Assembly: GCA_020740775.1 (NCBI GenBank)
Contig: JAHEWK010000012.1
Location: forward strand, 2,232,001 to 2,296,000
Length of the DNA stretch: 64,000 nucleotides
Source of the DNA: Ilyonectria destructans
Lineage: Eukaryota; Ascomycota; Sordariomycetes; Hypocreales; Nectriaceae
Direction of reading: 5' to 3'
A program made the position numbers and the translations under genes. Shown one piece after another: positions 42,701-59,356 of the stretch. The notes under the pieces are model-generated. The model searched no databases. It was not told the origin of the DNA and saw nothing but the letters and a program-made list of their open reading frames with translations. Each line of letters begins with the position of its first letter. Positions within the stretch are counted from its first letter, which is position 1.

Positions 42701-42838
42701 AAGGCGGAGGTGCGTGTGCCGGCCAAAGGTGCTGTGCAAGCCTCCCGCCGTGCCAAGCTTGTCGGCAACGATAATGGCTACGCAATCTACACTGTCCCCT
42801 CCGGCACGCATACCTTCAAGTCTACCATAGTTGCCTAG
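39731..42838 (+). CDS. secreted GH78 alpha-L-rhamnosidase
   Basis: Single exon, 1035 aa, start ATG 39731. Signal peptide residues 1-19 (RYSLILVFAAVMLAPVTA). N-terminal beta-sandwich domains lead to FARQFDVPSGKKVVDARLYLSGVG and WVFDFGQNFAGW. The (alpha/alpha)6 barrel contains DCPGREKLSYPAD, whose D-x4-E-x6-D spacing matches the catalytic acid cluster described for bacterial GH78 enzymes. EEWSRSASKNHMILAQIDEWF carries the candidate general base. It would remove terminal rhamnose from plant glycosides or pectin. Oddities: no intron in 3.1 kb, markedly GC-rich codon use, and an insertion at about residues 272-365 (GSTTVQLSAVTGYYVGGTVN, then AHAAGAQVTGSG) of a type I know mainly from actinobacterial enzymes. 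The opposite strand stays open for 519 codons because of the GC bias. Confidence 0.93.
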   Translation: MRYSLILVFAAVMLAPVTAASSSYSAVKAVQLSVDGRTDNPLGLGNTRPVLAWQMIQTRDCAEPLCPADRQTAYRIQAAATVADLQVGRLVWDSGKVDSDLQQVPFGLELGSRDTVVWRVRVWDARSKPSDWSRSSTWTMGLLDQADWGEARWIDYPGRTENQPLPLFARQFDVPSGKKVVDARLYLSGVGMHHATVNGEEITDEVLAPGYSNYQLSSEYRTYDVKKALRSGANAIGVSLGNGPAYVRRSVKNPAVGRNSPYSWWESQLKGNGTLEADTPAGSTTVQLSAVTGYYVGGTVNIDTGGGGDKLESRKITAIGNTTITFTPGLRLAHAAGAQVTGSGNNIAASDASAGAAVTPRLIGRLEIIYIDGSAMTIVTNRSWRTRLGPLVTNGWYSGSDYDARREQAGWDRPDAHLRSDLGWVAAGFAPPPNLATKLVARAAEPVKVQERFTPVSVTNPAPGTWVFDFGQNFAGWPLLKLPELPAGIIVKMAPAESLVANGTIDQESLGAGSRGSDIFNTYTTAGRAGGETWRPEFNYFGMQWVQVTGLPDGFRPTRDLVTGLRLQADVPVAGTFTSSDARLNRIHKMVRYSFATNIMSVFTDCPGREKLSYPADYTMPMGAIFRNFHLSAFLRTTIRHLAEGQSVADTSMAGNVALKTPVYDWGYTGRFGDEINWGDAIVLVPSLLHDLYGDTTVMAAYYDRMTAFVDYIQREKVQGHIVNAALADWVEDDSQTSGRITGTWGYYLTIRAMARMANITRHTADADRYTILAGEIRDAFNDAFYSDASGLYTNTGNNGTSNATQAAQALALDAGLVPDQRRKQVLDGLVDLAYDYPSSDGRGPHLSGGTIGLGPIVRALSAGDRDDVLWAALQQNDRPSYGYFMAPTEANPGGFTTIGEEWSRSASKNHMILAQIDEWFHAGVAGIRPTALSTISSTWEDRLVFQPKPVGDLKSAAGTYQTPRGEARSEWKRTARGAFTLAVTVPANTKAEVRVPAKGAVQASRRAKLVGNDNGYAIYTVPSGTHTFKSTIVA

Positions 42839-43522
42839 GTCACCATTCCGGCATTCCTCCCTCTCGTAGATGCGCAAGGGTGTCGGCGAGGGGACTTGAG
42901 CTAGGTGGCCATGCACAGAGATTGATGGCTCCCAGGGGTAAGACGTCCAGGTGAAGGTCGGATCCACAGGATGGCAGAGCTGGTGATCCGCACCACAGCG
43001 TCTGGCTGGTCGATGACAGAGGGTAGATCGGCATCTATGACAGAGAGGTTGTGCGGTTGACCGTACCAAACGACAGCTCTTATCGTAGTTGCATTCGCCT
43101 CCATAACAACGTAGACCGTACTCTTCGCGGTAGTATTAGTATCTATTTAGGTTACTATACAGTTTGAATATTTATACAGCTATACTCAGTATAAGTATAA
43201 ATAAACCGCACAATATAGGTAAATCTAAGTAGAAATACTGATAATATAGTAACTAGTGTGAATTAAAAGCTAGATTATTAATTGACAATAAAAATAATTG
43301 ATAAGTTATACTTATAACGCATATAATATAGAACTATTCATAATAAGCAATTAAGTAGAGTTTAAATCTAAGCTTAAATTTCTCTTCTTTACTACCTATC
43401 AACCTTTAAAGATAACAGACAAACAGCTATCCAACTTTCACCTGAAACAGTATGCGTTCCTTATCTATTGACATATGATAACGACATTATATGTCAAAAT
43501 GCAAGAACCTGTCACAACCCAT
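42839..43522. other. intergenic with AT-rich island
   Basis: 42839-43110 is ordinary 3' flank. 43115-43400 is strongly AT-rich (TATA, TTAA runs), marking the left edge of the sugar-utilisation cluster. No gene seen. Confidence 0.5.
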
Positions 43523-45314
43523 TTAGGCATGTTCTACAGAAACCTCTCCCTCCTTAGCTAAAAATGAATGCAAAGCATGGGCAGGCTCAGCCTGGCTGCG
43601 TTCGGCATCAAGAAGAGCTACCGTTCTCTTGAAGTGCCTCGGAGGCACGTTCATTGCATAGAGTTCATCCAACCTCTCGAAAGAAAGACCTTTAGTCTCC
43701 GGGAACAGGTACCAGCCCCCCACACTAGCCATAAGTCCAGTAGCCAAGAAGATAAAACCGACCTTGCCGCCCAAGTCTCCAGCATCAGGGTTGATCATGT
43801 ACGGGACTGTGAACTGCATAATCAGGCCCCAAACCGAGTTGGTAATAGTGATTAGGCCCTGAGTTGCTGCTCTCAATCTCATTGTTGCGATCTCTGAAGC
43901 CAGTACAAAGCCTGTGGCACCAATGGAGAGCTGATAAATCAGCGCCCAAACATAGAGCAAGGCCACGATGCCCCAACTTGCTTTGCTCCGATTGGGGACG
44001 CACCCCAGGATCCCGATTATGAGAAGCATGAGACAGAGCATGAACTGGGGACCCACGATCAAGAATCGGCGGCCATATATCTCGGTAAGGGGAAAGGCCG
44101 CGGTGCTAGCGAGAAGCATGACCACATATAAGGCGACCGAGGCCCTAAAATAGTCTTTGATCCCAATGAGCTCGAAGAAGTATGTAGCATACCCGATGAC
44201 AAAAGTGGCCCCGATCATTTGCTGGGCTGAAGCAGCAAAGATGGCTGTAAAAGTGCGCTTTCGGTTCGTGGCATTAAAGCATTCGGTTTCCAACTGGATG
44301 TTGACGCCCAGCAGCCTCCGCGGGGGGAGATCGTCAAGGTTACCATGTCGCTCGTTGGTGAGACGGATTTCCTCTTCAATGCGGGTGACCTCGATGTTGT
44401 AGTACTCGGCTTCCTGAAACCCGTAGATGCGACGAAGTGCTTTCTTCGCGTCGGCATTACGGCCGCGACGGACAAGCCAGTAGGGCGACTCGGGGAAAAA
44501 CGGCCAGGCTATCGTTAAGATGACTATCCACGCCTTTATTAGTAACTGTTTACACGTATGGGGCAGAAACAGGCCTTACGAGGGAAGAAGTACATGGCAA
44601 CCACAGGTAGCCACCATTGCCATAATCCAGAAATATGACTGCTGCCTTGGGACATGATGACAATGGCAAACTGGCCAAAGACGATACTGGTGTTGAAGAA
44701 GCAGAGAAAAAAACCACGAAGTTCAGGACGGCACGTCTCGCCAATCCAGAGCGGCGAAATAGTGAACATCATGCCGATAGCGATGCCGTTGACGCCACGG
44801 CCCGCCAGGTGCATCCGCCAATCAGGTGCAAGTTGTTGGAGAAGGACCCCGGCAACTGAGATGAGAGATGCGGCAAGGATTCCCCATTTGCGGCCAAACT
44901 TATCGAGAAGAGGCGCGAAAATGAAGGTAGAGACGATTTCTGTGGCTGGGGCGATGGAGTTCCAGGCCGAGAGGTAGTGAGCTGGAATCAGGTGGCTGCC
45001 ATCGGGCTGGAGCACTCCAAACTTCTCTTTGAAGGCGGGCAAGGCCGCGAGCTGGCCGCCAGCTACAATGTCAAAGCCTTGCATTACAACGCCGGAAGAG
45101 ATAAGTAGAGCTGATGAGGTTGTCAGACTGTGATATGGGACGGTGTAGGTGCAGGCCAATCTGACTTACCCCAGAGGGCAAATCGCGACTGCGACTTGAG
45201 GATCTTCCATTTGTTGGCTGGATCCACAACAGAGTAGTCGACTCTATACAGGGTAGTCAGTGGTTGATCAACGTCGCCAAGGATACGAGTTGCCTACCCG
45301 TGTATCAATGTCAT
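43523..45314 (-). CDS. MFS sugar transporter (alpha-glucoside/sucrose type)
   Basis: Four exons: 45314..45298, 45243..45170, 45110..44580 and 44523..43523. All introns are GT-AG and phases match; the product is 540 aa. The first exon is only 17 nt (MTLIH plus a split Gly). Twelve membrane spans are expected. Sugar-porter signatures: [16 protein letters not shown] in TM1-2, [34 protein letters not shown], and [15 protein letters not shown] at the end. The sequence around TM1-2 resembles maltose/alpha-glucoside proton symporters. In the plasma membrane it would import a sugar with protons. It is divergent from an intracellular GH32 gene, which argues for sucrose or a fructo-oligosaccharide as substrate. 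A minus-strand TATA (45441-45434) lies about 120 bp upstream. Confidence 0.92.
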
Positions 45315-45433
45315 TCTGAAATTGAGTTATTTTTTCCCCGCAGAACTGAATGGTCGGTGTGTCAGAACTGAGTGCAAGCTTGTGATGAAATGATAGCCTG
45401 GAGGTCAAGTAAATCTCGAACAGATACTGAACG

Positions 45434-45441
45434 TATTTATA
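45434..45441 (-). promoter_or_regulatory. TATA box of the sugar transporter
   Basis: TATAAATA on the minus strand, about 120 bp upstream of the transporter start at 45314. Confidence 0.45.
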
Positions 45442-45874
45442 CACCTTGAAGAGTGGTAGACTTGGCCGTTGACCGAACCCAAAGATTCGGTCTGTCGATG
45501 CGGGGTAAGTATGGGGTTGGTTGCGTGCAAATCCGGGGCGCATAACATTGTCGGTTCGATTTTGGTCAGGTCACTTCCAAAATCCAAACAAGCCACAACA
45601 GCGGAGTCCTGGTACGAAAGTGGAGAAGTTGAATCAAGTCTCATTACGCTTGAGGCGATGGTGTGAGCGGAAATGCGCTTGAGCGCTAGCGTTGATGGCT
45701 CGTCGCGGAGTTCCAGATAGCCCCGCGAACCCTGTCTCGGTTGCATCAGTCTGTCACCAGTTGGCGTTAGTACTCGGTCTTGACGCTAGGAGAGGCACTG
45801 GATGGTCACTGTGGCCGAAGGGTGGTTCCGTCGAAGACCTCGTCAACGTACCCTTTTACGATACCAAACAGCCA

Positions 45875-45888
45875 CGGTGTTAAAACCG
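45875..45888. promoter_or_regulatory. CGG-N8-CCG candidate Zn2Cys6 site
   Basis: CGGTGTTAAAACCG, an inverted CGG pair with 8-bp spacing, 88 bp before the intracellular GH32 start. The same layout recurs in the other two divergent promoters of the cluster. Binding is inferred. Confidence 0.45.
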
Positions 45889-45975
45889 AGTCCCCGAGGG
45901 TTCCCTTTCGAGCCATCAAGTATCTAGACACTCAGAGCAACCCATCACCTCCTGCAATCCATTTCAATTTCCCCA

Positions 45976-47875
45976 ATGGCAGGGAATCCGGAACAAACAC
46001 CGCGGTCCATTGAGAGGCCTAAGATCCATTTCTTCACAGACAGCTGGATCAACGATCCATGTGCTCCAGGCTACGACCCATGGACAAAAACATACCATCT
46101 CTTCTACCAATGTATGTTGAACTCCTTACCCTGGGAGACAATCCCTTTTGCCAGCTTGCGGCAGCTTACATAAAATCACAGGCAACCCAGCAGGATGCGC
46201 ATGGGGAAACATGTCCTGGGGCCACGCAGTGTCCAAGGACATGCTGACCTGGTCGCCGGCCTCGATTTCGCCAATCCTCCTTCCAGACCAAATTTACGAC
46301 TCTCAAGGCGTGTTTACCGGTTGTTGGATTCCTCCCACTGAGGACGCCCTTGACAAGACGTTGAGGATCGCTTACTCCTCTGTCAAGCACCTCCCCTTCC
46401 ATTGGAGCACACCACCATACCCACGAGATGCAGCTGGCCTAGCAATAGCGACATCCTGTGATGGAGGCATTACATGGGAAAAGTCTCCCCGTAACCCAAT
46501 ATTGGCGGGGGAGCCATCTGGCTTGCAAGTCACCGGGTTCCGTGATCCTTACGTGACGAAATTGCGGGCCATCAGCGAGGCTCTGGGGACGGGTCTCACA
46601 ACGTCTTTTGGGCTGATCTCTGGTGGTATCCAAGACTTAGGGCCCACCACGTTCTTATACGAGATTGGAGATAATAATGTCGAAAAGTGGAAGTATCTTA
46701 GCCCTTTAGTCGACGTACCAGCCAGGTTCCAGCCGTCAAAGAAGTGGTGTGGCAACTATGGCGTCAACTGGGAGTGCACCAACGTCGTCACGCTGCATGC
46801 AGACTCTGAAAGCCGCAATTTTCTGATTATTGGAGCCGAGGGCGACGTTGAAAAGGCCCATGTGAAGAATCTTGATCAATCCGCAGGAGTTCCCTCGCGC
46901 ACTGTGAGGGCTCAGTTGTGGATGTCGGGCGATCTCACTCGGACGGACGACGGGGCCAGGTTCCGATACGAGCGTGGGGGCTACCTCGACCACGGGACGT
47001 ACTACGCTGCGAATTCGTTCTTGGACCCCGTCTCAAATCGCTGTATTGTGTACGGCTGGATCCCGGAGGAAGACATACCTTTGGAAGCTGCTAAGCGGAA
47101 GGGTTGGAACGGCTCGCTTGCCATTCCGCGCGAGATCTTTCTTCTTCGGATACCGAATGTGGAGAAGGCCCTGCACAGCAAGCTTTCAGATATATACCCA
47201 TTCGAAATCAAGATCCAACCGGATGGTTCTACGACCATTTTCACTCTTGGAGTGAGGCCCATCGACGAGATGACCCGACTCCGAGAAGCCAGCAGCCGGG
47301 TGCTCAAGCTGGAACCGGCAGTGATGTTGCCAGATACGAGTGGTCTGGCACATCGGACAATCTTTCAGACAAGGTCGGCAAGTTGGGAGCTCGAGGCAAC
47401 CATTTCAATACATCCTGGGTGCGAAACCGTGGGCTTCCATCTCCGCCACAACAACGATTTGTCAATCCGTGCGTCCGTTACCTTCTGTACTGCCACGGAA
47501 ACCATCATCGTCGACCGCGAGGCTTCCACAGCTGATACGACAATCAACAAATGCCCAGATGCTGGGCCCTTTACTCTACTGATGAAAAGAGAGACCAATG
47601 AAAACAGCGAGCTGGCAATGGAGAAGCTGCAACTGCGCGTCTTTTCTGACGGAGACATTCTGGAGATCTTCGCGAATGACCGATTCGCTTTGGCTACTAT
47701 GGTGTATTCGGCAAGTTACAGTCAGGATAGCAGCGGGATTACTGCATTTGCAACCGGCGGTATAGGTAGTGCCGTGTTTGAAAGAGTAACAGTTTGGGAT
47801 GGACTAGATGCAAGGAATTTACCTGCCAGAGTTAACTCCCTTTCTGGCCAGAGAGACCATTCGTGTCCTTCATAG
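45976..47875 (+). CDS. intracellular GH32 beta-fructofuranosidase (invertase type)
   Basis: Two exons, 45976..46111 and 46182..47875. The 70-bp intron (GTATGT...TCACAG) lies within the HLFYQ-NP block. The product is 609 aa and has no signal peptide, so it is likely cytosolic. GH32 motifs are in order: SWINDPCAPGYDP with nucleophile Asp27, WGNMSWGHA, FRDPYV with transition-state stabiliser Asp167, and WECTN with acid/base Glu243. RVFSDGDILEIFANDRFALATMVYS closes the C-terminal beta-sandwich. The enzyme would cut sucrose or short fructans after uptake. The NDPCAP form is that of the intracellular fungal branch; FYQCNPAG has Cys where many relatives have Trp. The stop is 7 bp from the convergent regulator's stop. 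It is divergent from the sugar transporter. Confidence 0.93.
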
Positions 47876-47882
47876 ACCTAGC

Positions 47883-49740
47883 TTAATCTACATTATTTGC
47901 CTCATCAAACCAGGACTCGATCTCTGTCAGGCGATGAGCGAGGGATCTCTCCAGCAATGATAAAGATGGGCTGGCCTCCACGATTCGCCGGTCCACGGTG
48001 CTGGTAGACTTCAAGCACATGAGAAGCTGAGGCCAGTCCACTACACAACCAGCCCCAAGACAGGGTGTCCGAGCTGCTTGTATGACAGCCATGGACGACA
48101 TAAAGATGGAAGCATATAGCGTCCAGCGATTAACAATGCAGTTACGGATGGATATCAGCAGACTTGGCATCAACTGAATGTATGCCTGGAAGAATCGCTT
48201 GCAATGCTGAAGCACTTCGGAGGTGGCTACACCATCTTGAATACACTGGTAGACTGCCGGCCAGTATATTGATAACTTGCAGCAGTAATACTGGACACGA
48301 AGGAAGTTGCCCAGAGGTTCGACGAACATGGGGCTGTGGGTAGACCCCAAAGTATCGATTTCGAGATTCTGAAAACGAACAGATTCTGGAAGATAGCCGT
48401 ACCACTCATCGAGCTGTAGTTCTAGCTCTGACGCGATGTTCGGAGCGTAGACAATTTCTCCCTGAGGCGTTCTGCGAATAGCGGTGTTGCAGCGATGCAG
48501 CATGCGCCTCATAGAGATTTCGGCGAGAAAGTACGACTGCGTTTGATCCGTCTGAGGAACGTCCGCGGATACGTTGCTGGCTGGAGTAGTCGTTGAACCT
48601 TGAGGCGACCCCGTTTCGATATCGAATTGCCACGCGCGGCGGCTGTCCGGTAGCGCGACCTGGTCGTCGTGGTCCCAAATTCCGCTTCCGATGACGTTGA
48701 AATGAATACGAAGCTCACTCTCCAGGAGCAGCACTGCCCAGTAGGCTCTCTTCAGATGTTCGTAGATTTCGCCGTCGCCATCACCCACGTATTTCAGGAG
48801 GTTTTGTACTTTGAACGAGGTGATCATGGCGTAGTCGTATGCCTGGTAGGGCTTGGAAAGGCAGCAATGGTAGATGCTTAGAAGTACCAGACATTGAACA
48901 CTCTCGACGCTATTGTCGATAAGAACTGCTGGCAAGGAGGCCATGGCGGCTTCCAGGTAGACCTCGCTGCTGTTGTCACTACAGGATACTCCCAACTCAT
49001 GGTCCTGCTGGGCAAGAATACCGAGTGCAGCAACTAGGAGTACCATGCATGTCTCGGACCCCGGCGTCAAAGGCCCCGAGATGATGCCCAGATACCGTTC
49101 TGAAAAGCGGGGGCGAAGGATTGGATACCAGACGTGGATATGCGTGGAGAAGGCAGCAAGGGCTGAGAGGGCTTGTTCTCGCTGAATGAGACGCACCCTC
49201 GATGAGCTATCCACGCCGACGGGCGCGGCATTCCTCTCCAGCGTCACAAGCTCCTGAGCGAAACCAGGGCCAAGACCGAGGATGGACATCATGCACTCCG
49301 TTCCGAGCAGTTGGAAGGGCAGTTTCTCTTCGCCAGTGAAGACGTGGTTTTCCGGGATGTGGTCCAGGATACGCCCCGGGGCGACAGGGGGCAACTGGGT
49401 AGAAGGTAGGACGCTGGTGATGTAATCGAGTCGTTGGTTTATTGCAGCGAGCTCCATCTCCACTCCGTGGGCGGGTCAGCTCAGATCGCGGGGATGCCAG
49501 AACAAAGACCTACCTGGATGTAGGTGTAGGGGCTGATTCGCTCTGTGCATAGTGGCACTTGAGGCCACGGGCGAGACAAAATCCACAGTCGGGCTTCCGA
49601 CTATCGCACCTGGTCCTCCTCGTCCTGCAGGCGCTGCATGCCGTCGTCGTCCTTGTCCGAGTCCTCCTCCGCGAAGTCCCCGACCGGGGCGTCGGCGGAG
49701 TGTCGGATAGAGTGGCCAGGTCTGGCATATCAGCGTCCAT
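47883..49740 (-). CDS. Zn2Cys6 transcription factor of the fructan cluster
   Basis: Proposed exons 49740..49514 and 49413..47883, giving 585 aa. The zinc cluster is at Cys35, 38, 45, 52, 55 and 62 (C-x2-C-x6-C-x6-C-x2-C-x6-C), preceded by an Arg/Thr-rich stretch. The fungal regulatory domain follows (STHIHVWYPILRPRFSERYL, LVLLSIYHCCLSKPYQAYDYA, NLRRVQYYC-type region). The splice is uncertain. The donor GTAGGT at 49513 is clear, but the only phase-keeping acceptor I find is at 49414. That removes MELAAINQRLDYIT, which looks like a real dimerisation helix; the true junction may differ. The gene lies inside the cluster, convergent with GH32 and divergent from GH172, so it is the natural candidate pathway regulator binding the CGG-N8-CCG sites. 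Confidence 0.85.
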
Positions 49741-50068
49741 GGTGTTGTGTTCCCGAGCAGTGAGGGAGGACAAAAGTCGGGCGCGTGTGTTATCTCCGCG
49801 ATCTGTCTTTATGGCCTGCTGACTGGACGGCTCTTGTGTGATGTGAGGGGCTTTAATGAGCGGGGGCAATCATCCTGCTCGTCCGCCACACCACGCCATG
49901 TCGGGGTGTTAGCTCCGAGTCCGCGTCGTTTAGTCGCTTGTGTTGTTCGACTGCAGCCGGATGAATGGACCCGCCCGAGCACGGCGTCGTGGAGAATTAA
50001 ACACCATCCCGAAGCTTCACTAACAAGCCAATCACTTGCGTAGCATCCATCTCCAGACCATCGGATTG

Positions 50069-50082
50069 CGGAGAGACATCCG
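50069..50082. promoter_or_regulatory. CGG-N8-CCG candidate Zn2Cys6 site
   Basis: CGGAGAGACATCCG; a further CGG lies 4 bp to the left. Same layout as in the two other divergent promoters of the cluster. Placed here it could serve autoregulation of the Zn2Cys6 gene and activation of GH172. Confidence 0.45.
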
Positions 50083-50211
50083 ACTTTGTGACCTCTTGGC
50101 GAAACAAGTTTATGCGTTTGAGCCAACAATGGCACGAGACAGCGCATTTTCGTCTCCACAGGATGCAGAACCGCCATCCGGCCATCATCGGACAGCTCCA
50201 AGGCGACCATG

Positions 50212-50219
50212 TATATAAA
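50212..50219 (+). promoter_or_regulatory. TATA box of the GH172 gene
   Basis: TATATAAA about 120 bp upstream of the ATG at 50339. Confidence 0.5.
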
Positions 50220-50338
50220 CCTGTTTCTGAGAGTGAGCATGTGTCACTGTCTCTGTAGCGACTCATCTCTCCAAGACCTTGATTCAACCGGGAAAGTATT
50301 TCACCATTTATCACGACTACAATAAAGTCCAAAACATC

Positions 50339-51730
50339 ATGAACAATTTCAGCTCCTCCCTCGGCAGCGACCTCCTCAGCAATGCTGCAAAGTTGAAAAC
50401 GGCGCGCACCGGCCGCGTTTCCAGTTGGGACCACAGCGGTCTCAACGAAGATGCCTGGGTGATCCAACCAGGGGAGACGGCTGTATTGGCGGACCTCGAG
50501 GGACCTGGCACCATCACCCACCTGTGGTTCGTCCAGACATGCCGCCGCATCATGGGCCCCGGCCTCATCCCATACTCCAAGTCAGGCGTCGCCATGATGG
50601 AGGTGCATAACGCTCTCGGCCTAAACTACGAAGTTAGCGATCCGGACTACTATCGCAAGGTGCTGATTAAGATGTACTGGGATGACTCGGAGACTCCAAA
50701 CGTTTTGGCTCCCATCGGCGATTTCTTCTGCCTGGGCCACTCCATGGCAGCCAATTTCCAGTCACTCCCCTTTACAGTATCCGTGAAGCCATCTGAGGAG
50801 AAGAAGTTCGGCGGTGCCGCGGCATTCAACTGCTACCTACAGATGCCCTTCAACAAGCGCGCTCGCATCGAGATCGAGAACCAGAACGACCAAGCTTACA
50901 TTCAATACTTCTACATTGACTACGAGTTGTTCCCCGAACCGCTCAGCGAGGACACCCTCTTCTTCCACGCGCACTGGCGCCGCGAGAACCCTACCAACGG
51001 TTGGGCTCCCGAGACCATCCAGACCAATAGCTTGGAAACACAGGTGCCCAATCTCGATGGTAAAGGCAACTACGTCATCTTGGAGACGGAGGGCGCTGGT
51101 CAATACATCGGCTGCAACCAGAGCGTTGCCCACTTCCAGGGGACTTGGTGGGGCGAAGGCGACGATATGATCTTCATCGACGACGACACATGGCCCCCTT
51201 CGATGCACGGGACTGGCGGCGAAGACTACTTTAGCCAGGGTTGGGGCATGCAGAAGAATGCGTACCCCTTCTGCGGCACCATCATCCACGAGGAAGATGT
51301 GCCAAACCATCAGGTCAGCTACCGATGGCACCTTGCCGACCCTGTCCGTTTCAGCAAGAAAATCCGCGTCACCATGGAGACGGGGCATGCGAACCACCTG
51401 CGGGACGACTGGTCTACTACAGCGTACTGGTACCAGACCCTGCCTGGTCCCAAGCTCAACATCTTGCCGGTAGAGGATCGAATTCCTCGCAAGCCTGACT
51501 TCCCAGCTGGTGAGCACCCTGCGCCACCACAGCTAGAGGCTCTGGATCCCAAGAGAAGGGCTATGGTGGAGCAGCAGAGAGATCGGATGGATGCCTTTAT
51601 GCGGGACAGGGATGCATGGCTAGAGAGGCGGGCTCGAGACACGCAGGAGCGTGCGAAGAAGAACATTGAGCATTCTAAGGATATTCGCCGACGCTTTCTC
51701 GAAGGTCTGAAGGGGCAGCAGAAGAAATGA
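50339..51730 (+). CDS. DUF2961 / GH172 family glycoside hydrolase
   Basis: Single exon, 463 aa, start ATG 50339 (the frame opens further upstream only through TTG). Without a signal peptide it should be cytosolic. Family blocks: VSSWDHSGLNEDAW, LADLEGPGTITHLWF, GDFFCLGHSMAANFQSLPF, FQGTWWGEGDDMIFIDDD and HGTGGEDYFSQGWG. The glutamates in WGEGDD (Glu273) and GTGGEDYF (Glu295) sit where the bacterial founding enzyme has its catalytic pair. GH172 members act on alpha-D-fructofuranosides, difructose dianhydride I or alpha-arabinofuranosides. Among two GH32 genes and two sugar carriers, an alpha-fructoside or cyclic difructose role is the likeliest. The last 75 residues are a charged, Arg/Lys/Glu-rich probable coiled coil after the catalytic core. 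Substrate is inferred from context. Confidence 0.85.
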   Translation: MNNFSSSLGSDLLSNAAKLKTARTGRVSSWDHSGLNEDAWVIQPGETAVLADLEGPGTITHLWFVQTCRRIMGPGLIPYSKSGVAMMEVHNALGLNYEVSDPDYYRKVLIKMYWDDSETPNVLAPIGDFFCLGHSMAANFQSLPFTVSVKPSEEKKFGGAAAFNCYLQMPFNKRARIEIENQNDQAYIQYFYIDYELFPEPLSEDTLFFHAHWRRENPTNGWAPETIQTNSLETQVPNLDGKGNYVILETEGAGQYIGCNQSVAHFQGTWWGEGDDMIFIDDDTWPPSMHGTGGEDYFSQGWGMQKNAYPFCGTIIHEEDVPNHQVSYRWHLADPVRFSKKIRVTMETGHANHLRDDWSTTAYWYQTLPGPKLNILPVEDRIPRKPDFPAGEHPAPPQLEALDPKRRAMVEQQRDRMDAFMRDRDAWLERRARDTQERAKKNIEHSKDIRRRFLEGLKGQQKK

Positions 51731-53512
51731 ATCAATATTAGAGAAGGTTGTAGTGAGATCCAAAGAAGATGACTGCTAGTCAACTGGCAATGGACCTCTT
51801 CTCGGTGAATAGGATATGTACCACGAATGAAAGCGTCAAAATGGCTATAGATTATTGAACGTGAGATTTGAGGCGCTTGTGATGTCATTCGACATGATTG
51901 CTATAGAGGCAAACATACATCTGCCTAGGATGACGTTGTATCAAGAAGTAATCGATCCTCGAAGAGTGCACTGTGCCTCTCTTGAGCCGTGGTTGATATG
52001 TTATTACAAAAATAAAGACGGCCTTTAAATTTTAATCTCTATTATATCATAGGATTAACTTATGGGTTTTATCTTGAGGCTTTATATTAGTGCGTAAAAT
52101 TAGGTACCTATAGGCGCCTATAGGTACCCAAAAGTTTTTTAGGTAGCCTTTCAGCACCTATGACTACTAATTATTTTTCCAACGGGTACCCGTGGGCAGC
52201 TAAAAATAGGAAATTCTATAGGGTAGGTAGAATTTTCTTAAATAAAAACATAAAAACTTTGTATTAAAATTATATAAAATAAATTAAATTATAAGAAAAA
52301 TATTTTATAAGAGATATATATAATATAAATTAACGACGAAGACGACAATGAGACCAGGGTGCAGTGAAAATCCAGGCGAAAAAGAAGGGTAACAACGCAA
52401 GCATCTGGACACAAGCGTTCCGGACGCCGCTAGCCCGAGCAACAATCGTCAGCACGGAATGTCAGCCATCAGTCTCCAATGAGGATGCAGGCATGCTTCC
52501 TTGTGAATCGGATCAAATCGACGCCGACATGATCACGGCCACATTCACTAGCCCCAACGACAAAACACCAGCGGTCGACCGCGTCACCGAAGACCGCTGT
52601 GGTGACACCATGGCTAGGGATTACATCCTCGACGCTCACCCTCACGTAAAGTTGCCGACCAATGGACCCTACCTCGGAGCCCTCTTCCCGGACGTAATCC
52701 AACTCCTAACATCCATGCGCCGACCGGCAGCGCTGCAGCGGGTCTATTTCCTGGCACGGGCGGCCGTCGAAAACCAGACGGCATCAGACGGTAGATGGAG
52801 GGAAGCAGACGCAACATGAGATACAAAGGTGGATTCTCTAATGCGGAACATCGTCGCAGACTACAAGCAAAGCATGATAGGGAGGTTCAGGAAGCGGTAC
52901 TACTAGGTCTAGCTGTACCAAAATCGAGGGCATCCTGGTCTTGGATGCGGGCAAGGGCTCGCTGGAGTCGTTGACGATGTACGATTTCGGCTTGCTTGGC
53001 TACTGTCTCGATGATGAGTGGACTAGGGCAATCTGCAAATGATGTTCCATTAAAGGGATGGCAGTGAGAAATGGTAATGTGGAATGGAGTTTGACGGCTA
53101 GAGCGAGACCAACGCTGGGTGGGTGGTCGTCAAGGCTTTAACGACGGTTGACGCCTTAGTTACTCAGGCCCATGAGCCACTAAAGCCACTTAGGCGGCTA
53201 CAATAGGTAGTAACGCCGCATCGCTCTTGTGAAAGATTAGTGTTCTATATTCGCGTTTCATTTTCCCGGTGGCACAGAACAGCGATGTTGTCTAGGCAAC
53301 TATTGTATTGACGCGTTGAAGCGTGACATTTAGATCCTCGACGTGGTGGCTGTTGAAGCCCTATACATATGTGAAAATAGCCAAAGGGGTTTGCAAGAGA
53401 GAGTGTCTAGAAAGGCATGTGTCTGCTCGCCGTGAGGTTGTAGGAGTTACTGTAGGGTCCGCTTGACGGGCTTGCCCAAAGGGTCTGAACGTAGTGCTCC
53501 TGGTGTCTCATC
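51731..53512. other. intergenic, 1.8 kb, with AT-rich core
   Basis: No supported gene. 52015-52340 is AT-rich and includes a 26-bp perfect palindrome (52103-52128) and ACGGGTACCCGT near 52180-52191. A 150-codon frame at 52364-52819 lacks an ATG start and family resemblance. Confidence 0.45.
52103..52128. repeat. 26-bp perfect palindrome
   Basis: The left arm GGTACCTATAGGC is followed directly by its exact reverse complement, with no spacer. It lies in AT-rich DNA with further GGTACC-type copies nearby (about 52130-52191). Confidence 0.9.
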
Positions 53513-55367
53513 TTAAGCGGACTCGGTACGTCCGTCGTGCTCGGCGGTATCGTGGCTCACTCTATGGCCATTGCTCTCAGAGTCCACCTTTTCACCGCCA
53601 ACGCTCAGCACGCCTATGTGGCCCGCAGCAGCCTCACGCTCCTTGAAGGTAATGGTGGGGCGCCACTTGGTGCTCTTGCGCGCGTCGCTGACTTCGTTGT
53701 ATAGCTCGTCGACCTCTTCCAGTGCAAGCCCTTTCGTTTCGTAAATGAAGAAGTATACAAAGGCCACGCAGACGAAACAGGCGCCAAACCAAATGAAAAA
53801 GATCTTGGACTGCAGGTTCGCGTTGCCGGGCCCATAATTGACTAGATAGGGGGTCGCGTACGCGATGGCCCAGTTGAGTAGCCACTAGATGGGAGTTAGC
53901 AGCGGCTCAGTGATCCAGGGTTGTTTGCTTCGTTTTGTGTCAGAAGATGAGGGAAACGGGAGGGCTTACGTTGGTTGCCGTTGTGATGGAGAGGCTCTTG
54001 GCACGCGTGTGCAGCGGAAAGATCTCGCCAGTGACAACCCAGGCAATTGGTCCCCAGGTGGAAGCAAAGAAGAAGATATAGATGCAGATAAAGGCGATGC
54101 CAGCCCTTTGCGCCGCGACATTATAGACGATAGTGTTACCGACACTGTCTTGAGCTGTCGTCAAAGTTCCCAGCATGGCGACAATAAACTGCGAAACGCA
54201 CATGCCGACGGCACCCCAGAAAAGGAGAGGGCGGCGACCCCACTTGTCGATGGCGTATAGTCCAGGAATAGTCGAGCCAACATTGACGCATGAAGTGATG
54301 ACCTGAATGATGAAGGAGTCGTCTATGCCTGAGTTTTTGAAGTACTGCGTGCCGTAATAAAATATGAAATTAATACCAGTGAACTGCTGAAGGGCTTGGA
54401 GTCCCATGCCTGTCCATTGTCTCTTGGCCAACGGACCGCGGAAACAGTCAAGGTAGCTCGATTTGGTCACGCTCCGTTCGTAGTCGTGGTTCGCTTTGAT
54501 TTCGCTCAGCTCTCCCAAGATCGAGGGATGATCCGGGGAAAGTCTCCGTAGCTTCGCGAGGGACTGAGCGGCCTGCTCAACCTTGTCTCGCATGATAAGG
54601 TAACGGGGAGTTTCTGGAAGCACTAGCATTCCGCCAATCAAAACGATAGCGAATGCAAATTGCACAGCAATCGGGATACGGTATGAGCCAGTATCATCTC
54701 GTGCTTGGGTTGCGTTATTCACTACTGCGGCAAGGAGAAGGCCGATGGTAATGGCGAACTGGTAGGCACCAACAATAGCACCTCGGATCCATTTCGGGGC
54801 CGTCTCAGATTGGTAAAGTGGAACTACACATGATTAGTATAACAGCAATGCAGGTTGCGACATCAGGATGGATCGTACTCAAAGCTGAGATTAAACCGAC
54901 ACCGAAACCAGCGATGAATCGGCCAGCTAGGAAAAGGGGAATAGAGGTGGCTGCTGTCTGGAGAATGACGCCCAGGTTGAAGACCCAGGACGATGCGATG
55001 AGAGCCCATCGACGACCAATATAGTCGCCGAGGAACGGCGAGGAAAGGGCGCCGAAAAAGGTGCCTGCCGAGAGAATAGAGACAATCGCTGCGGATTGGG
55101 AAGGAGAAACATCGGGGTGACCTTGAGAATCCGTGTAACCGGTTGAGAAGAGTTCTTTCCAGTGTTCCATGGCCAGGATACCGCCGATAGTGCCAGTATC
55201 GTAGCTGGATTATTCCGTTAGTCAACCATATACGGCACAGAAGGGTGATAAAGATCATACCCGAAGAGAACGCCGCCGAAGGCGACAAAGGCGCCTATGG
55301 CGATAGCCGGCCAAGACTCACCGGCCTCGCCTTTGGGCTTGGAGAGAGCGAACTTCGACAAGCCCAT
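53513..55367 (-). CDS. MFS monosaccharide (hexose) transporter
   Basis: Four exons: 55367..55261, 55204..54879, 54823..53970 and 53884..53513. All GT-AG introns keep phase; the product is 552 aa. Twelve spans are expected. Signatures: GYDTGTIGG in TM1, GDYIGRRWAL, RFIAGFGVGLISALIPLYQSE, PETPRYLIMRDK, QQFTGINFIFYYGTQYF in TM7, DKWGRRPLL, GPIAWVVTGEIFPLHTRAKS, and YETKGLALEEVDELY at the end. The QQFTGIN-FYYG region is typical of hexose carriers. It would take up fructose or glucose released outside the cell by the divergent secreted GH32. The cytosolic tail of about 60 residues is hydrophilic. Confidence 0.93.
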
Positions 55368-55609
55368 TGTGTTGGATTTTTTTGGTTCGTTTATAAGCTG
55401 TGGACTGTTCGCAGCAGCGTCTTGGTTGAGAGTGAGGATGTAAGAATGAACATGATGGTGTTTCTTGGGACGTGGGTAGATAGATATAGAATCTCATTCC
55501 CAGAGCTGGTGTAGCAGATGCTTCATCATTGTCTCTCCATGTCACGTATTTCCTGATTGGGAACCAACACGACACGACGTAGCCTTGCGTGTTACTCGCA
55601 GTGGATACA

Positions 55610-55623
55610 CGGTGGGGATTCCG
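55610..55623. promoter_or_regulatory. CGG-N8-CCG candidate Zn2Cys6 site
   Basis: CGGTGGGGATTCCG, about 240 bp upstream of the hexose transporter start. One of four copies in the three divergent promoters of the cluster. Confidence 0.45.
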
Positions 55624-56214
55624 CACAAGGGAGGTTCGGCCATGCCGATGGACTAAGGGAAGTATTGCGTTCTCCTTATCTGTCTCTTTGACTAATTGCG
55701 ATCAGACATGGAATCCATCATGCGGAGAAATACACTCCAGGCCCATGGGCATCTCCGAAAGCAAGGGCCTAGCGTCATAGATAACGCAGGGTGGTTTAAT
55801 CCCATCCCCTAGATGGAAGGTAGAGTAGATGAGAGATTAATTCAAAGTCCAGGGATGACGAAGGGGGTCACAAAGATAGTTGTCATTGGGCCGTTGCCCT
55901 GCAGTCAGCTGTCAAAGCGCTTGAGGATGGGCTGGAGCATGTGCTATAGTAACCGAGGGGACCAACGATCATTGGTTACCTGCCTAGAGGGAGGCGAGCT
56001 AGAAGAAAGCGTGTCTCCCCTATTAAGCATACCGGAGACTTGAGCCATGTGCGTATTATCCGCGATGCATGGACTAGTGAATGGAAGCACATGTTCGGAT
56101 TTCGGATGACAACTCGGCAAGTCTGAATCAAACGGTCTCTTGTTCCTATTCTCTTCACCTCCTGGCGTCCCAGCGACAGGAGGAGAGATGAAAAATTGTA
56201 GCGTAGCAGTAGGG

Positions 56215-56228
56215 CGGACCGCTGTCCG
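56215..56228. promoter_or_regulatory. CGG-N8-CCG candidate Zn2Cys6 site
   Basis: CGGACCGCTGTCCG; the five outer bases on each side are complementary (CGGAC/GTCCG), making it the most symmetric of the four copies. It lies midway between the two divergent genes. Confidence 0.45.
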
Positions 56229-56471
56229 GCAGACGGAGTTCAGCTATAGCGTGTGGATTGTTAAGCAACCCACCTGCCCAAGGAGGATGGTGGGAAATGT
56301 GGCATCAGTCATGTTCCTTGAGACGCAACGGAGAGGGTAACTCCGCTCGATCCGGTGTGTACGACATGGCATCTGATGGTGAGAGCGGAGTAGAAGCCAG
56401 GAAATCGAAGACAGTATACGCGGACCGGACGTTGTAGCCCGCGGTGGCACGACGTTATCGAAGTTTAGACG

Positions 56472-56483
56472 AAGCGATCGCTT
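56472..56483. repeat. 12-bp perfect palindrome
   Basis: AAGCGATCGCTT, in the divergent promoter, 31 bp left of a longer inverted repeat. Possible protein-binding site. Confidence 0.7.
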
Positions 56484-56513
56484 ATGCGGAGCTGTGGAGA
56501 AGCCAGGCTAGTC

Positions 56514-56535
56514 GCCGCTAGAACCTTCTAGCGGC
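56514..56535. repeat. inverted repeat, 10-bp arms, 2-bp loop
   Basis: GCCGCTAGAA, then CC, then the exact reverse complement TTCTAGCGGC. A related CTTCTAGCG occurs near 56629-56640. Possible regulatory site in the divergent promoter. Confidence 0.8.
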
Positions 56536-57158
56536 CTTTGAGAACTACGCGAGCATGCTCGTCTCGAGCCACGTCTGTCCTCTCGGGCGTCTGGCAACCG
56601 GGGTTTGTGCTTCGGGATCAGCGAGAAGCCTTCTAGCGTCCTTCTCTGCAGTAACGCTCGAGGCCAAGAGCCAGTACCAAGCTTTTGCGCAATCGCCTGG
56701 TCCTCCACCCGACTATGTAGGCCTAGCTCATGTTAGTGCGGCGTTGGCGGGGAGCTGCAATGCTACATCGCACCATCTCTGAATAACTGTTGGAGACGCT
56801 TGAGATGGGGTAATTCCTAACACGGACTATGTTTGGGTTACATCGCGTCCCCACATTCGCGGAGTAATCGGATGTATCCCGATCTTCCTGGCTTGCCCTA
56901 ACTCCCTAACTGCTAAAGGCAGGTCTTGTTCTCCCCCACACGCTCTCCGCACTCGCCTTCCCCTGCGAGGCAAGCCGTGAGAATTGCGGAGGCGACGTCC
57001 TCGGACCGACATTTACGACAAGGGCAATGCCATGATTTCCATCAGCCCATGTGAACATCTGTTGCAAAGCCTCGAGCCCTTCCAAGGCCAGAGTTGGGTT
57101 GATTGCAGAATACAGGTGGATGTGGATGTGGACGCCTCGTTACCCTCATTAGAGAATG

Positions 57159-57170
57159 TATATATATTAA
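57159..57170 (+). promoter_or_regulatory. TATA box of the secreted GH32 gene
   Basis: TATATATATTAA about 125-135 bp before the ATG at 57296. Confidence 0.5.
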
Positions 57171-57295
57171 CCCGATGCTGCTGCTCTGGTGAATGAATTA
57201 AGGACATCCGTCTCCGTTTCTCCTCGAGAACTCAAGACTTGGTTACTGCCTCATCACCTACTCCTTCTTTGAATCTGGCGCAGCCCATAAGCAAG

Positions 57296-59356
57296 ATGCA
57301 TCTTATTCCTCGTCCCCAGTCGTCCCAGACGCTCGCGCTGCTGACGCTGTCTGTGTCAACCGTGTTTGCGGCTTCGGTCCCCAAACTTCCAAACTGCCAC
57401 GCTCACCAGTACCCGGGCCCTCGCAACCCCAGCTTCGAGACTGGCACGCTCGAGGGTTGGCAGGTCATCAGCGGGGATGCATTTGGAAGCAACTCAGTCA
57501 GCTCTGCCACGTCGTATTGGGATGGTCCTTTCCACCAGGTCGGCAAGAATTTTGTCTTCGGCTTGTCACAAGCTGGCGAAGCGGCCGTCGGCCAACTCCA
57601 GTCAAGCTCATTCCGAGCCAGTTCTGTCATGAGCTTCCTCATTGGCGGCGGCTATGACCCTGCCAACCTCTACGTTGGTCTCATGCGGGAGAAGGACAAC
57701 AAACTCCTTCTAAAGCAAACAGCCACCAACGATGAGGCCCTGATTCGCATTATCTGGGACACCAGCAAGTGGGCAGGGCAGATGGTGCACTTGGTTGTGC
57801 ATGACAGCAGCACTTCGAACTCGTGGGGCCACATCAACATTGACGACGTCCGCGTCGGCTGTGACGCGCTGGGCGATGGCAAAGGCCTCACCTTCAATGT
57901 ACTCGGCGAGGCAAATCAACCGCCTGCAAGCAGCTCAGCGGCCTGCTCCCTCTTTGCCGCAGACCCCATGCGCCCCCAGTTCCATTATACTCAGTATCAG
58001 GGCTGGATCAACGATCCGGCGGGCCTCAGCCAATGGCGAGGGCACCATCACCTCTTCAGCCAGTTCAACCCGGACGCGCCGCTGTGGGGCCCCATGTATT
58101 GGTCTCATGCGGAGAGCGTCGATGCGGTGCATTGGCGCGAGTTGCCTGTTGCCTTATCCCCGAATAATGCAAGCGACCCCAAGGACACTTCTGGGCGCTT
58201 CACTGGCAGCGCCGTCGTCGACAAACTTCATGGCAACAAACTGCGCCTCATCTTCACTGACTACACGGACACGGCTTTTCACCCTGGCACAGTCCAGGAG
58301 GTCGTATCCACTGCGACCAGCGCAGATGGCATCCACTTCAATCTCGATTCGAAGAACCCTGTTATTGCGGGCCCTCCCGCGGGAGCGCCCACCTTCTTCC
58401 GCGATCCTAAAGTCTTTTATGACCCTACAGACAACTCGTGGAAGATGGTAGTCGGCTCGAGCAACGACGTCAGCGGCAGCGTGCAGTTGTATCGCTCCGC
58501 CGACCTCGTCTCCTGGTCCCACGTTGGCATCCTCTACACCGGCGATGGCAGCACGGGCAACGTGTGGGAATGTCCCAACTTCTTCCCCCTCGGTGACAAG
58601 TGGGTCCTGTTCTATGGCGGAAACGCGTTAGGGTGGTACGAGACGGGCTCATACAACGGTTCAGTCTTCACCAGCGAGAAGCGTGGCCTCATCGATGCCG
58701 GCCCTGACAGCTACGCGATGCAGTGGTATAAGGACGCCTCGGGCCGCGACCTAGCCATCACATGGATGGGCAACTGGCCCACGCCAAAGTGGCCGAGCCG
58801 CGTCAACGGCTGGGCTGGATCGCAGTCCGTAACCCGGGAGCTTTTCATTCGCAACGACGGGGGCCTAGGCAGCCGTCCTATCGCTGCCCTTGACAAGCTT
58901 GCAAGCGGTCCAGCGAAAAAGCTTGGGCGGCGGAGGGCCGACGAGACCGCTCTCGTTGTCGGGAGCACAAAGACGGCGAGGTTGCAAGTCGCCGTGGACC
59001 TCGGCGCGACAACGGCCTCGTCATTCACCATCTCGCTATTCAAATCCAAGGCAGAGTCAGTGCTGCTGACTTACACCACGGCAAACCGAACTCTGACGCT
59101 TGACACGGAGAATGCCGGGTACGGCCAGGCGGGAACGTGGCAAGCTGTCATTGCTGGCTCGGCCAGGAACAAGCTGACGCTGGATATATTTATCGACCGT
59201 TCTAGCCTGGAGGTCTTTGCTGGCGATGGGACGGTTATGACGGCTACCATTTGGCCGAGATATCAAGAGTCGAAGGACATCGCCATTGTTGGACACGGGG
59301 GGACTGCAGCGTTTGAATCCATCAACCTAACGCCTCTTGGTTCGAGCTGGTGCTAG
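57296..59356 (+). CDS. secreted GH32 fructanase/invertase with extra N-terminal domain
   Basis: Single exon, 686 aa from ATG 57296 (the upstream TTG is not used). Residues 1-27 form a signal peptide ending near VFAAS. Residues about 35-195 (PRNPSFETGTLEGWQVISGD, LIGGGYDPANLYVGLMR, GHINIDDVRVGC) form a beta-sandwich/CBM-like module seen in many bacterial levanases and fructanases. The GH32 core has YQGWINDPAG with nucleophile Asp240, FFRDPK with Asp370, and VWECPNFF with acid/base Glu425. KLTLDIFIDRSSLEVFAGDG ends the C-terminal beta-sandwich. WINDPAG differs from the common WMNDPNG. It would act outside the cell on inulin, levan or sucrose, feeding the divergent hexose transporter. Exo or endo mode cannot be read. 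Confidence 0.93.
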   Translation: MHLIPRPQSSQTLALLTLSVSTVFAASVPKLPNCHAHQYPGPRNPSFETGTLEGWQVISGDAFGSNSVSSATSYWDGPFHQVGKNFVFGLSQAGEAAVGQLQSSSFRASSVMSFLIGGGYDPANLYVGLMREKDNKLLLKQTATNDEALIRIIWDTSKWAGQMVHLVVHDSSTSNSWGHINIDDVRVGCDALGDGKGLTFNVLGEANQPPASSSAACSLFAADPMRPQFHYTQYQGWINDPAGLSQWRGHHHLFSQFNPDAPLWGPMYWSHAESVDAVHWRELPVALSPNNASDPKDTSGRFTGSAVVDKLHGNKLRLIFTDYTDTAFHPGTVQEVVSTATSADGIHFNLDSKNPVIAGPPAGAPTFFRDPKVFYDPTDNSWKMVVGSSNDVSGSVQLYRSADLVSWSHVGILYTGDGSTGNVWECPNFFPLGDKWVLFYGGNALGWYETGSYNGSVFTSEKRGLIDAGPDSYAMQWYKDASGRDLAITWMGNWPTPKWPSRVNGWAGSQSVTRELFIRNDGGLGSRPIAALDKLASGPAKKLGRRRADETALVVGSTKTARLQVAVDLGATTASSFTISLFKSKAESVLLTYTTANRTLTLDTENAGYGQAGTWQAVIAGSARNKLTLDIFIDRSSLEVFAGDGTVMTATIWPRYQESKDIAIVGHGGTAAFESINLTPLGSSWC

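What the first reader, a model, noticed from the sequence alone, without database searches (positions are those of the whole stretch)
43523..59356. Fructan/sucrose utilisation cluster containing a GH172-family enzyme
Six genes lie in three divergent or linked pairs: transporter with intracellular GH32, Zn2Cys6 regulator with DUF2961/GH172, and hexose transporter with secreted GH32. GH32 acts on beta-fructosides; the founding GH172 enzymes act on alpha-fructofuranosides and difructose dianhydride I. Together they could break down both linkage types, which resembles a bacterial polysaccharide utilisation locus built from fungal genes. I know of no described fungal cluster that pairs GH172 with GH32. 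The families and layout are seen in the sequence; the joint function is inference.
Basis: partly seen in the sequence, partly recalled or inferred. Interest (0 to 1): 0.86.

Follow-up and report, generated by a model that had tools for sequence, protein, structure and literature searches.

The report
Bacterial-type fructose-disaccharide enzyme in fungal cluster
A filamentous fungus carries a bacterium-derived enzyme, probably one that opens or closes rings of two fructose units, next to the fungus's own fructose-cutting enzyme, a regulator and a sugar importer, and part of this arrangement recurs in some other fungi.

Summary
The six genes exist at the stated coordinates in a 71.7 Mb fungal genome, Ilyonectria destructans or very near it. 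The core is MFS1, intracellular-type GH32 (GH32i), a Zn2Cys6 regulator (TF) and single-copy GH172; the core, not the whole six, is the finding.

The GH172 keeps the catalytic, -1 and +1 subsite residues of Bifidobacterium dentium difructose dianhydride I (DFA I) synthase/hydrolase. The +1 lysine is absent from three related solved proteins, at least two of them D-arabinofuranosidases. Kashima 2021 had already suggested a fungal GH172 as the orphan Aspergillus fumigatus DFA I synthase and described a bacterial GH172-GH32-transporter locus.

New here: (1) locus tags or shared contigs link GH172 to GH32i and/or TF in 9 of 29 named fungal rows; (2) fungal GH172s form one clade nested in Actinomycetota; (3) GH32 directly follows GH172 in 47 of 80 bacterial loci, yet fungal GH32i is only 23-28% identical to those neighbours, so GH172 apparently joined a native GH32i-TF pair.

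Membership of MFS2 and the secreted GH32 rests on proximity alone. Substrate and co-regulation are inferred. The TF's first intron looks non-canonical in this strain.

The parts
43523..45314 (-). MFS1, Sugar_tr-type MFS transporter, 4 exons (45314-45298, 45243-45170, 45110-44580, 44523-43523), 541 aa; inferred importer of a fructo-disaccharide
   Evidence: Pfam PF00083; gene model; Afu5g00500, numbered next to the A. fumigatus GH172 AFUA_5G00510, is listed as a maltose permease
45976..47875 (+). GH32i, intracellular-type GH32, exons 45976-46111 and 46182-47875, 609 aa; catalytic motifs WINDP (D27), FRDP (D167), WEC (E243); no evident signal peptide (by eye)
   Evidence: Pfam; model; motifs; homologues; tree; closest solved chains are fungal fructofuranosidases/fructosyltransferases such as 5xh8 and 3lf7
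47883..49740 (-). TF, Zn2Cys6 + Fungal_trans regulator; first intron near 49513-49457 not canonically resolved
   Evidence: Pfam; 100% to EDB80DRAFT_724462 [Ilyonectria destructans] over the exon-2 query; splice enumeration; next best long match in the genome 28%
50339..51730 (+). GH172 (DUF2961), intronless, 463 aa, no evident signal peptide (by eye); predicted DFA I synthase/hydrolase (alpha-D-fructofuranosidase); E295 nucleophile, E273 acid/base, E88 and K150 +1 subsite
   Evidence: Pfam; 7v1v E 1.2e-155; residue check; single copy; tree
53513..55367 (-).
   Evidence: Pfam; start
57296..59356 (+). GH32s, secreted-looking GH32 (hydrophobic N-terminus read by eye), 686 aa, about 200-residue N-terminal region without a Pfam match at E 0.001; membership in the module not shown
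   Evidence: Pfam; start; closest solved chains 7vco and 1uyp, aligned from residues 201 and 226 on; weak 27% N-terminal match to GH32 ORFs in L012 and L020
51980..52345 (.). AT-rich dispersed-repeat relic between GH172 and MFS2
   Evidence: diverged copies at 4 other places, 75-80% identity

Best explanation
The core MFS1-GH32i-TF-GH172 is a fungal difructose/alpha-fructoside utilisation module. Proposed working: MFS1 imports a fructo-disaccharide (inulobiose, DFA I or sucrose); cytosolic GH172 interconverts DFA I and inulobiose by a retaining mechanism (E295 nucleophile, E273 acid/base); cytosolic GH32i splits inulobiose (and sucrose) to hexoses, pulling an equilibrium that by itself favours DFA I; the Zn2Cys6 TF controls the genes. 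The GH172 gene came from an actinobacterium and was added to an existing fungal GH32i-TF pair. MFS2 and the secreted GH32 could feed it from outside by cutting fructans. Shown: families, active-site residues, linkage in some other fungi, bacterial nesting. Inferred: substrate, direction, transport specificity, co-regulation.
For: GH172 aligns to alphaFFase1 (7v1v) E 1.2e-155. Of 11 published pocket/Ca residues 10 are identical and N272 is D, as in all 29 named fungal rows (residue roles). The +1 residues needed for inulobiose but not for pNP-alpha-D-Araf (E85, K147) are kept as E88 and K150; the K150 position reads G, gap and N in 4kq7, 8ah3 and 8ic8 (by eye from the alignments). Linkage: shared contig length GH172&GH32i 15, GH32i&TF 43, all three 8; length-shift control 0-1. 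Neighbouring tags: E. sideris PV11_04161/04162/04163, E. bonariae LTR84_002788/789/790, Saxophila LTR77_001928/929/930. Bacteria: GH32 directly downstream in 47 of 80 loci. B. dentium has GH172, GH32 and ABC transporter genes together, both enzymes without secretion signal, and inulobiose:DFA I equilibrium 1:9. Origin.
Against: No activity, expression or transport data. Linkage shown for only 9 of 29 named fungal GH172 rows, three of them only by sharing a contig of 0.65-5.5 Mb; A. ambiguus has GH172 on a different contig. K147 is R in 4 of 29 and E85 is D in 1 of 29 named fungal rows, so the +1 site is not fixed in fungi. No regulator motif was established. The TF may be mis-spliced or damaged in this strain. 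MFS1 specificity is by family name only. GH172 also includes D-arabinofuranosidases.
Confidence: 0.6

Rival explanations
1. It is an ordinary sucrose/inulin (InuR-like) cluster: TF, transporter and intracellular invertase handle sucrose, and GH172 is a neighbour with a separate role.
For: In A. niger, inuR is NRRL3_03593, the InuR-dependent putative maltose/sucrose transporter is NRRL3_3594 and sucB, an intracellular invertase gene, is reported under InuR control; that the three are clustered is recalled from the abstract of Yuan 2008, which is not held. GH32i-TF neighbours were seen in ten genomes for which I have no linked GH172 row. F. oxysporum is said to have four InuR homologues.
Against: GH172 sits beside this pair in several ascomycetes. 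The InuR consensus CGGN8CGG is not enriched (34 vs 31 expected) and none lies in the three divergent promoters. InuR is described as mainly in Aspergilli and related species. Whether our TF is an InuR orthologue could not be tested.
Confidence: 0.2
2. GH172 is an exo-alpha-D-arabinofuranosidase used on actinobacterial arabinan.
For: Characterised GH172s of Dysgonomonas, Nocardia and others are exo-D-arabinofuranosidases; alphaFFase1 also has alpha-D-arabinofuranosidase activity.
Against: Closest solved relative is the DFA I enzyme (522 bits vs 183, 155 and 105 for the other three); +1 subsite E/K kept; the partner enzyme is a GH32; no evident signal peptide, so extracellular polymer would be out of reach.
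Confidence: 0.12
3. All six genes are one regulon: secreted GH32 and hexose transporter outside, disaccharide route inside. (Not exclusive of the best explanation.)
For: Proximity and symmetric divergent layout; two of about 9 GH32 loci of the genome lie in this 16 kb.
Confidence: 0.3
4. The adjacency is a chance collection without shared function.
For: Linkage is patchy; gene order within the module varies between species (E. sideris vs Saxophila).
Against: Repeated co-location with a zero-to-one control and the parallel bacterial pairing.
Confidence: 0.03

Closest known systems
B. dentium BBDE_2039-2043 locus (GH172 alphaFFase1 + GH32 + ABC transporter; Kashima 2021, PMC8605356)
   Same: GH172 with DFA I pocket beside a GH32 without secretion signal and an importer; same proposed logic of uptake, ring opening and splitting
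   Different: Fungal MFS importer and Zn2Cys6 regulator; GH32i only 23-28% identical to its 12 best hits among GH32 ORFs of bacterial GH172 loci; fungal GH172s group with Streptomyces/Jiangella, not with alphaFFase1
A. fumigatus difructose-anhydride synthase, EC 3.2.1.134 (orphan; gene suggested as AFUA_5G00510 by Kashima 2021)
   Same: Fungal GH172; a maltose permease, Afu5g00500, carries the neighbouring gene number
   Different: AFUA_5G00510 sequence not available here; its activity is not proven and its GH32 neighbours were not seen
A. niger InuR system (inuR, transporter NRRL3_3594, sucB)
   Same: Zn2Cys6 regulator, maltose/sucrose-type MFS and intracellular GH32
   Different: No GH172 in the passages I saw (term searched); CGGN8CGG not enriched here; orthology of TF and InuR untested
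Bacterial polysaccharide utilisation loci
   Same: Import, degradation and regulation genes together
   Different: No SusC/D among the six gene products; divergently arranged eukaryotic genes

Membership tests
GH172 (DUF2961) | DUF2961 domain over the curated cut-off | tested here: met
   281 bits vs 27
GH172 (DUF2961) | Two catalytic glutamates | tested here: met
   E273 and E295
DFA I synthase/hydrolase subgroup | -1 pocket W267, D292, W298, Y187' | tested here: met
   W270, D296, W302, Y190
DFA I synthase/hydrolase subgroup | +1 pocket E85', K147' | tested here: met
   E88, K150
DFA I synthase/hydrolase subgroup | Ca site N31', D33', N272 | tested here: inconclusive
   N36, D38 kept; N272 is D275
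DFA I synthase/hydrolase subgroup | Activity on inulobiose/DFA I; hexamer | not testable with these tools
   needs protein
GH32 | GH32 N and C domains and catalytic D/D/E (GH32i) | tested here: met
GH32 | GH32 N and C domains (GH32s) | tested here: met
InuR regulon | CGGN8CGG (itself only a predicted site) in promoters | tested here: not met
   none in the three divergent promoters; 34 vs 31 expected in window
InuR regulon | TF orthologous to InuR | not testable with these tools
   InuR sequence and paper not held
Bacterial PUL | SusC/SusD pair | tested here: not met
   absent among the six gene products

The most novel reading that the evidence does not exclude
Several fungal lineages run a dedicated, regulator-controlled difructose cycle built around a GH172 captured from an actinobacterium: imported inulobiose is locked as DFA I (favoured 9:1), a reserve that invertases cannot cut, and is released again on demand by GH172 plus GH32i, with DFA I or inulobiose as the inducer sensed by the TF. 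This would give the 1980s A. fumigatus DFA I synthase its gene, pathway and physiological role.
Probability: 0.2. Interest if true: 0.82.

Novelty: new variant of a known kind. Interest (0 to 1): 0.6.

Why it matters
It supplies a genomic context, a candidate partner enzyme, an importer and a regulator for an orphan fungal activity (EC 3.2.1.134), and suggests how a bacterial enzyme can be adopted by a fungal catabolic cluster: bacterial and fungal clusters show the same GH172-GH32 pairing with GH32 partners of distant lineages. It also speaks against the published guess that eukaryotic DUF2961 proteins 'likely have different functions' (PMC8812541, passage), at least for this clade.

Tried and rejected
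Promoter test: CGGN8CGG not enriched. Spaced CGG/CCG dyads and shared 9-10-mers in the three divergent promoters were listed without a significance test and gave nothing I would build on. CGGN4CGG is over chance in the whole window (49 vs 32.6, 1 of 100 shuffles) and 6 lie in the promoters, but it was picked after looking: inconclusive.

First bacterial neighbour scan with a fungal GH32 profile found GH32 in 33 of 80 loci; 10 chosen ORFs were Pfam-confirmed, and a profile of those found GH32 in 50 of 80, 47 directly downstream. The first count was an underestimate and was replaced; most of the 47 rest on the profile alone, two of them (L021, L055) with weaker scores.

Identity of A. niger P0186 with SucB or SucC: not resolved; the SucC of PMC11865173 has another D-to-D spacing (130 vs 140). 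The 'group 8' and 'group 5' intracellular GH32 of Parrent 2009: our GH32i could be either; not resolved.

Structure prediction of GH32s to name its N-terminal region: machine busy three times; dropped.

Fungal DNA neighbourhoods could not be read (the collections within reach are prokaryotic, viral, plasmid and E. coli, apart from the own genome); linkage was therefore inferred from locus tags and contig lengths.
Full report
WHERE AND WHAT. The window lies in a 71.7 Mb, 74-contig genome. The TF exon-2 query is 100% identical to EDB80DRAFT_724462 of Ilyonectria destructans (Nectriaceae), and GH32i is 93% identical to an Ilyonectria robusta protein, so the host is I. destructans or very near. 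All six reported genes are present; I built models for GH32i, GH172 and MFS1. DUF2961 is single copy; GH32 occurs at about nine loci (13 exon matches, my grouping), two of them here and two others within 5 kb of each other on contig C56; the best other long match to the TF is 28%.

THE ENZYME. The GH172 aligns to B. dentium alphaFFase1 (7v1v) at E 1.2e-155, 522 bits, against 183, 155 and 105 for 4kq7, 8ah3 and 8ic8, with 50.7% identity over 436 aligned columns. Using the residue roles given by Kashima et al. (PMC8605356, passages and sections 12-14 read), 10 of 11 pocket and Ca residues are identical; N272 is aspartate, as in all 29 named fungal rows. E85 and K147 make the +1 site: their mutants keep pNP-alpha-D-Araf activity but lose inulobiose activity. 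Both are kept here (E88, K150), whereas the K150 position reads G, gap and N in 4kq7, 8ah3 and 8ic8 (read by eye). Among the 29 named fungal rows, though, K147 is K in 25 and R in 4, E85 is E in 28 and D in 1, and E270 is kept in 27 with gaps in 2. The window protein thus looks suited to a difructose substrate rather than D-arabinan; activity itself is untested. Neither GH172 nor GH32i shows an evident N-terminal signal (by eye; no predictor was run).

LINKAGE IN OTHER FUNGI. No fungal genome collection was within reach, so I compared the best-120 lists for GH172, GH32i and TF. Exact matches of 'longest contig' length (119, 120 and 120 values, P0088 dropped for lack of a value): GH172&GH32i 15 (8 under 100 kb), GH172&TF 12 (one, 7933, is probably coincidence because the sources differ), GH32i&TF 43, all three 8. 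Eight length shifts as control gave 0-1. Locus tags that I could pair by eye (tabulated; not every row was checked): E. sideris PV11_04161 TF, 04162 GH32i, 04163 GH172; E. bonariae LTR84_002788 GH32i, 002789 TF, 002790 GH172; Saxophila LTR77_001928 GH172, 001929 TF, 001930 GH32i; Cadophora M221 IFR05_007124 GH172, 007126 GH32i; Elasticomyces and P. australis GH172 next to TF; ten further genomes GH32i next to TF. Altogether 9 of 29 named fungal GH172 rows show linkage, three of them only by a shared contig of 0.65-5.5 Mb, which is weak. Against: in A. ambiguus GH172 lies on an 18,543-base contig and GH32i and TF on an 88,439-base one. The other 19 rows gave nothing I could use either way, since the lists stop at 120 and members of 90% clusters are hidden. 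In A. fumigatus a maltose permease, Afu5g00500 (PMC2526178, passages), has the number next to AFUA_5G00510, the GH172 that Kashima et al. proposed as the 1980s DFA I synthase.

BACTERIAL PARALLEL. None was found in the Poribacteria/Latescibacteria rows or the enterobacteria, nor in several Chloroflexi, Lachnospiraceae and Planctomycetota. Note that the four Streptomyces loci L004-L007, nearest to the fungal clade, do not have a GH32 directly behind the main GH172 (in three of them a GH32 sits beside a second GH172), whereas Jiangella and Phytoactinopolyspora do. Background: 57 GH32 matches in about 54 Mb of nine such genomes, so about 0.001 expected per locus in that place. Kashima et al. reported the pairing in B. 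dentium and in 6 of 10 B. breve strains.

ORIGIN. A 67-row tree (quick search; 24 of 29 named fungal rows plus the window, 7 of 9 named bacterial rows, 34 of 80 loci, alphaFFase1; the unnamed metagenome rows were left out and could alter the picture) puts all 25 fungi in one clade (SH-aLRT 100), inside Actinomycetota with Streptomyces next (96) and Jiangella, Solirubrobacteraceae and Nitriliruptor around (99). Holding the 35 bacterial alphaFFase-like rows together without fungi is rejected (p-AU 0.0047). Inside the fungi the 20 Pezizomycotina rows do form one side of a branch (support 87, not decisive), but Hypocreales as one clade (p 9e-5) and Eurotiales/Onygenales as one clade (p 5e-6) are rejected, so transfer between fungi or old paralogy followed; these groups were named after the tree was seen. 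The fungal GH32i is only 23-28% identical to its 12 best hits among GH32 ORFs of the bacterial GH172 loci and the fungal rows form their own clade on a long branch (100, length 2.21). So GH172 seems to have come without a GH32 partner, perhaps from a Streptomyces-like copy that had none beside it, and to have been joined to a fungal GH32i-TF pair.

HOW IT PROBABLY WORKS. MFS1 imports a fructo-disaccharide; GH172 opens DFA I to inulobiose or closes it; GH32i splits inulobiose. Because the GH172 equilibrium favours DFA I 9:1, a co-localised GH32 is what would draw the reaction to fructose, a simple reason for the repeated pairing. This step is inference. The secreted GH32 and MFS2 may supply oligosaccharides and hexoses, but nothing besides proximity binds them to the core.

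WHAT IS KNOWN. In searches for 'GH172' (13 papers) and 'DUF2961' (5 papers) I saw no fungal GH172-GH32 cluster described; I read passages of three of those papers (PMC8605356, PMC8812541, PMC10115798), the rest only as listings. Regulator-transporter-hydrolase systems for sucrose or maltose are known in fungi (A. niger InuR, passages; MAL clusters, passages). Krupovic et al. (PMC8812541, passages) report a Talaromyces DUF2961 fused to a fungal transcription-factor region and guess different functions for eukaryotic members; the neighbourhood seen here suggests, as inference, that this fusion joins two cluster neighbours, by annotation or in fact.

VERDICT.

Noticed in passing
window 39728-42838 +: Intronless GH78 alpha-L-rhamnosidase in a 65% GC island beside MFS1; 68% identical over residues 9-1027 to an Acrocarpospora pleiomorpha protein (5 of 9 bacterial genomes searched have a match; all other pieces 40% or less). 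It looks like a second, perhaps later, actinobacterial transfer next to the cluster; fungal relatives were not searched.
   Followed up: partly
window about 49457-49513 -: First TF intron has no canonical GT-AG solution giving the junction seen in relatives; among the enumerated options the in-frame GT-AG at the expected donor drops the start of the coiled coil, and the public I. destructans model is marked partial.
   Followed up: partly
window 51980-52345: AT-rich relic of a dispersed repeat with diverged copies at 4 other places in the genome. A second AT-rich stretch at 43120-43420 gave no other copy.
   Followed up: yes
G000:C73:3110706-3112237: A GH32i-like gene in pieces (41-56% identity) with stops between or inside them, a possible pseudogene unless the stops are intronic.
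   Followed up: no
L004, L005, L006: Streptomyces loci carry two GH172 genes, the second one beside a GH32, the main one not.
   Followed up: no
P0244, P0250: Dactylonectria macrodidyma has a 92% and a 69% identical TF, and the F. oxysporum TF is 67%, so Nectriaceae may hold two versions of the module.
   Followed up: no
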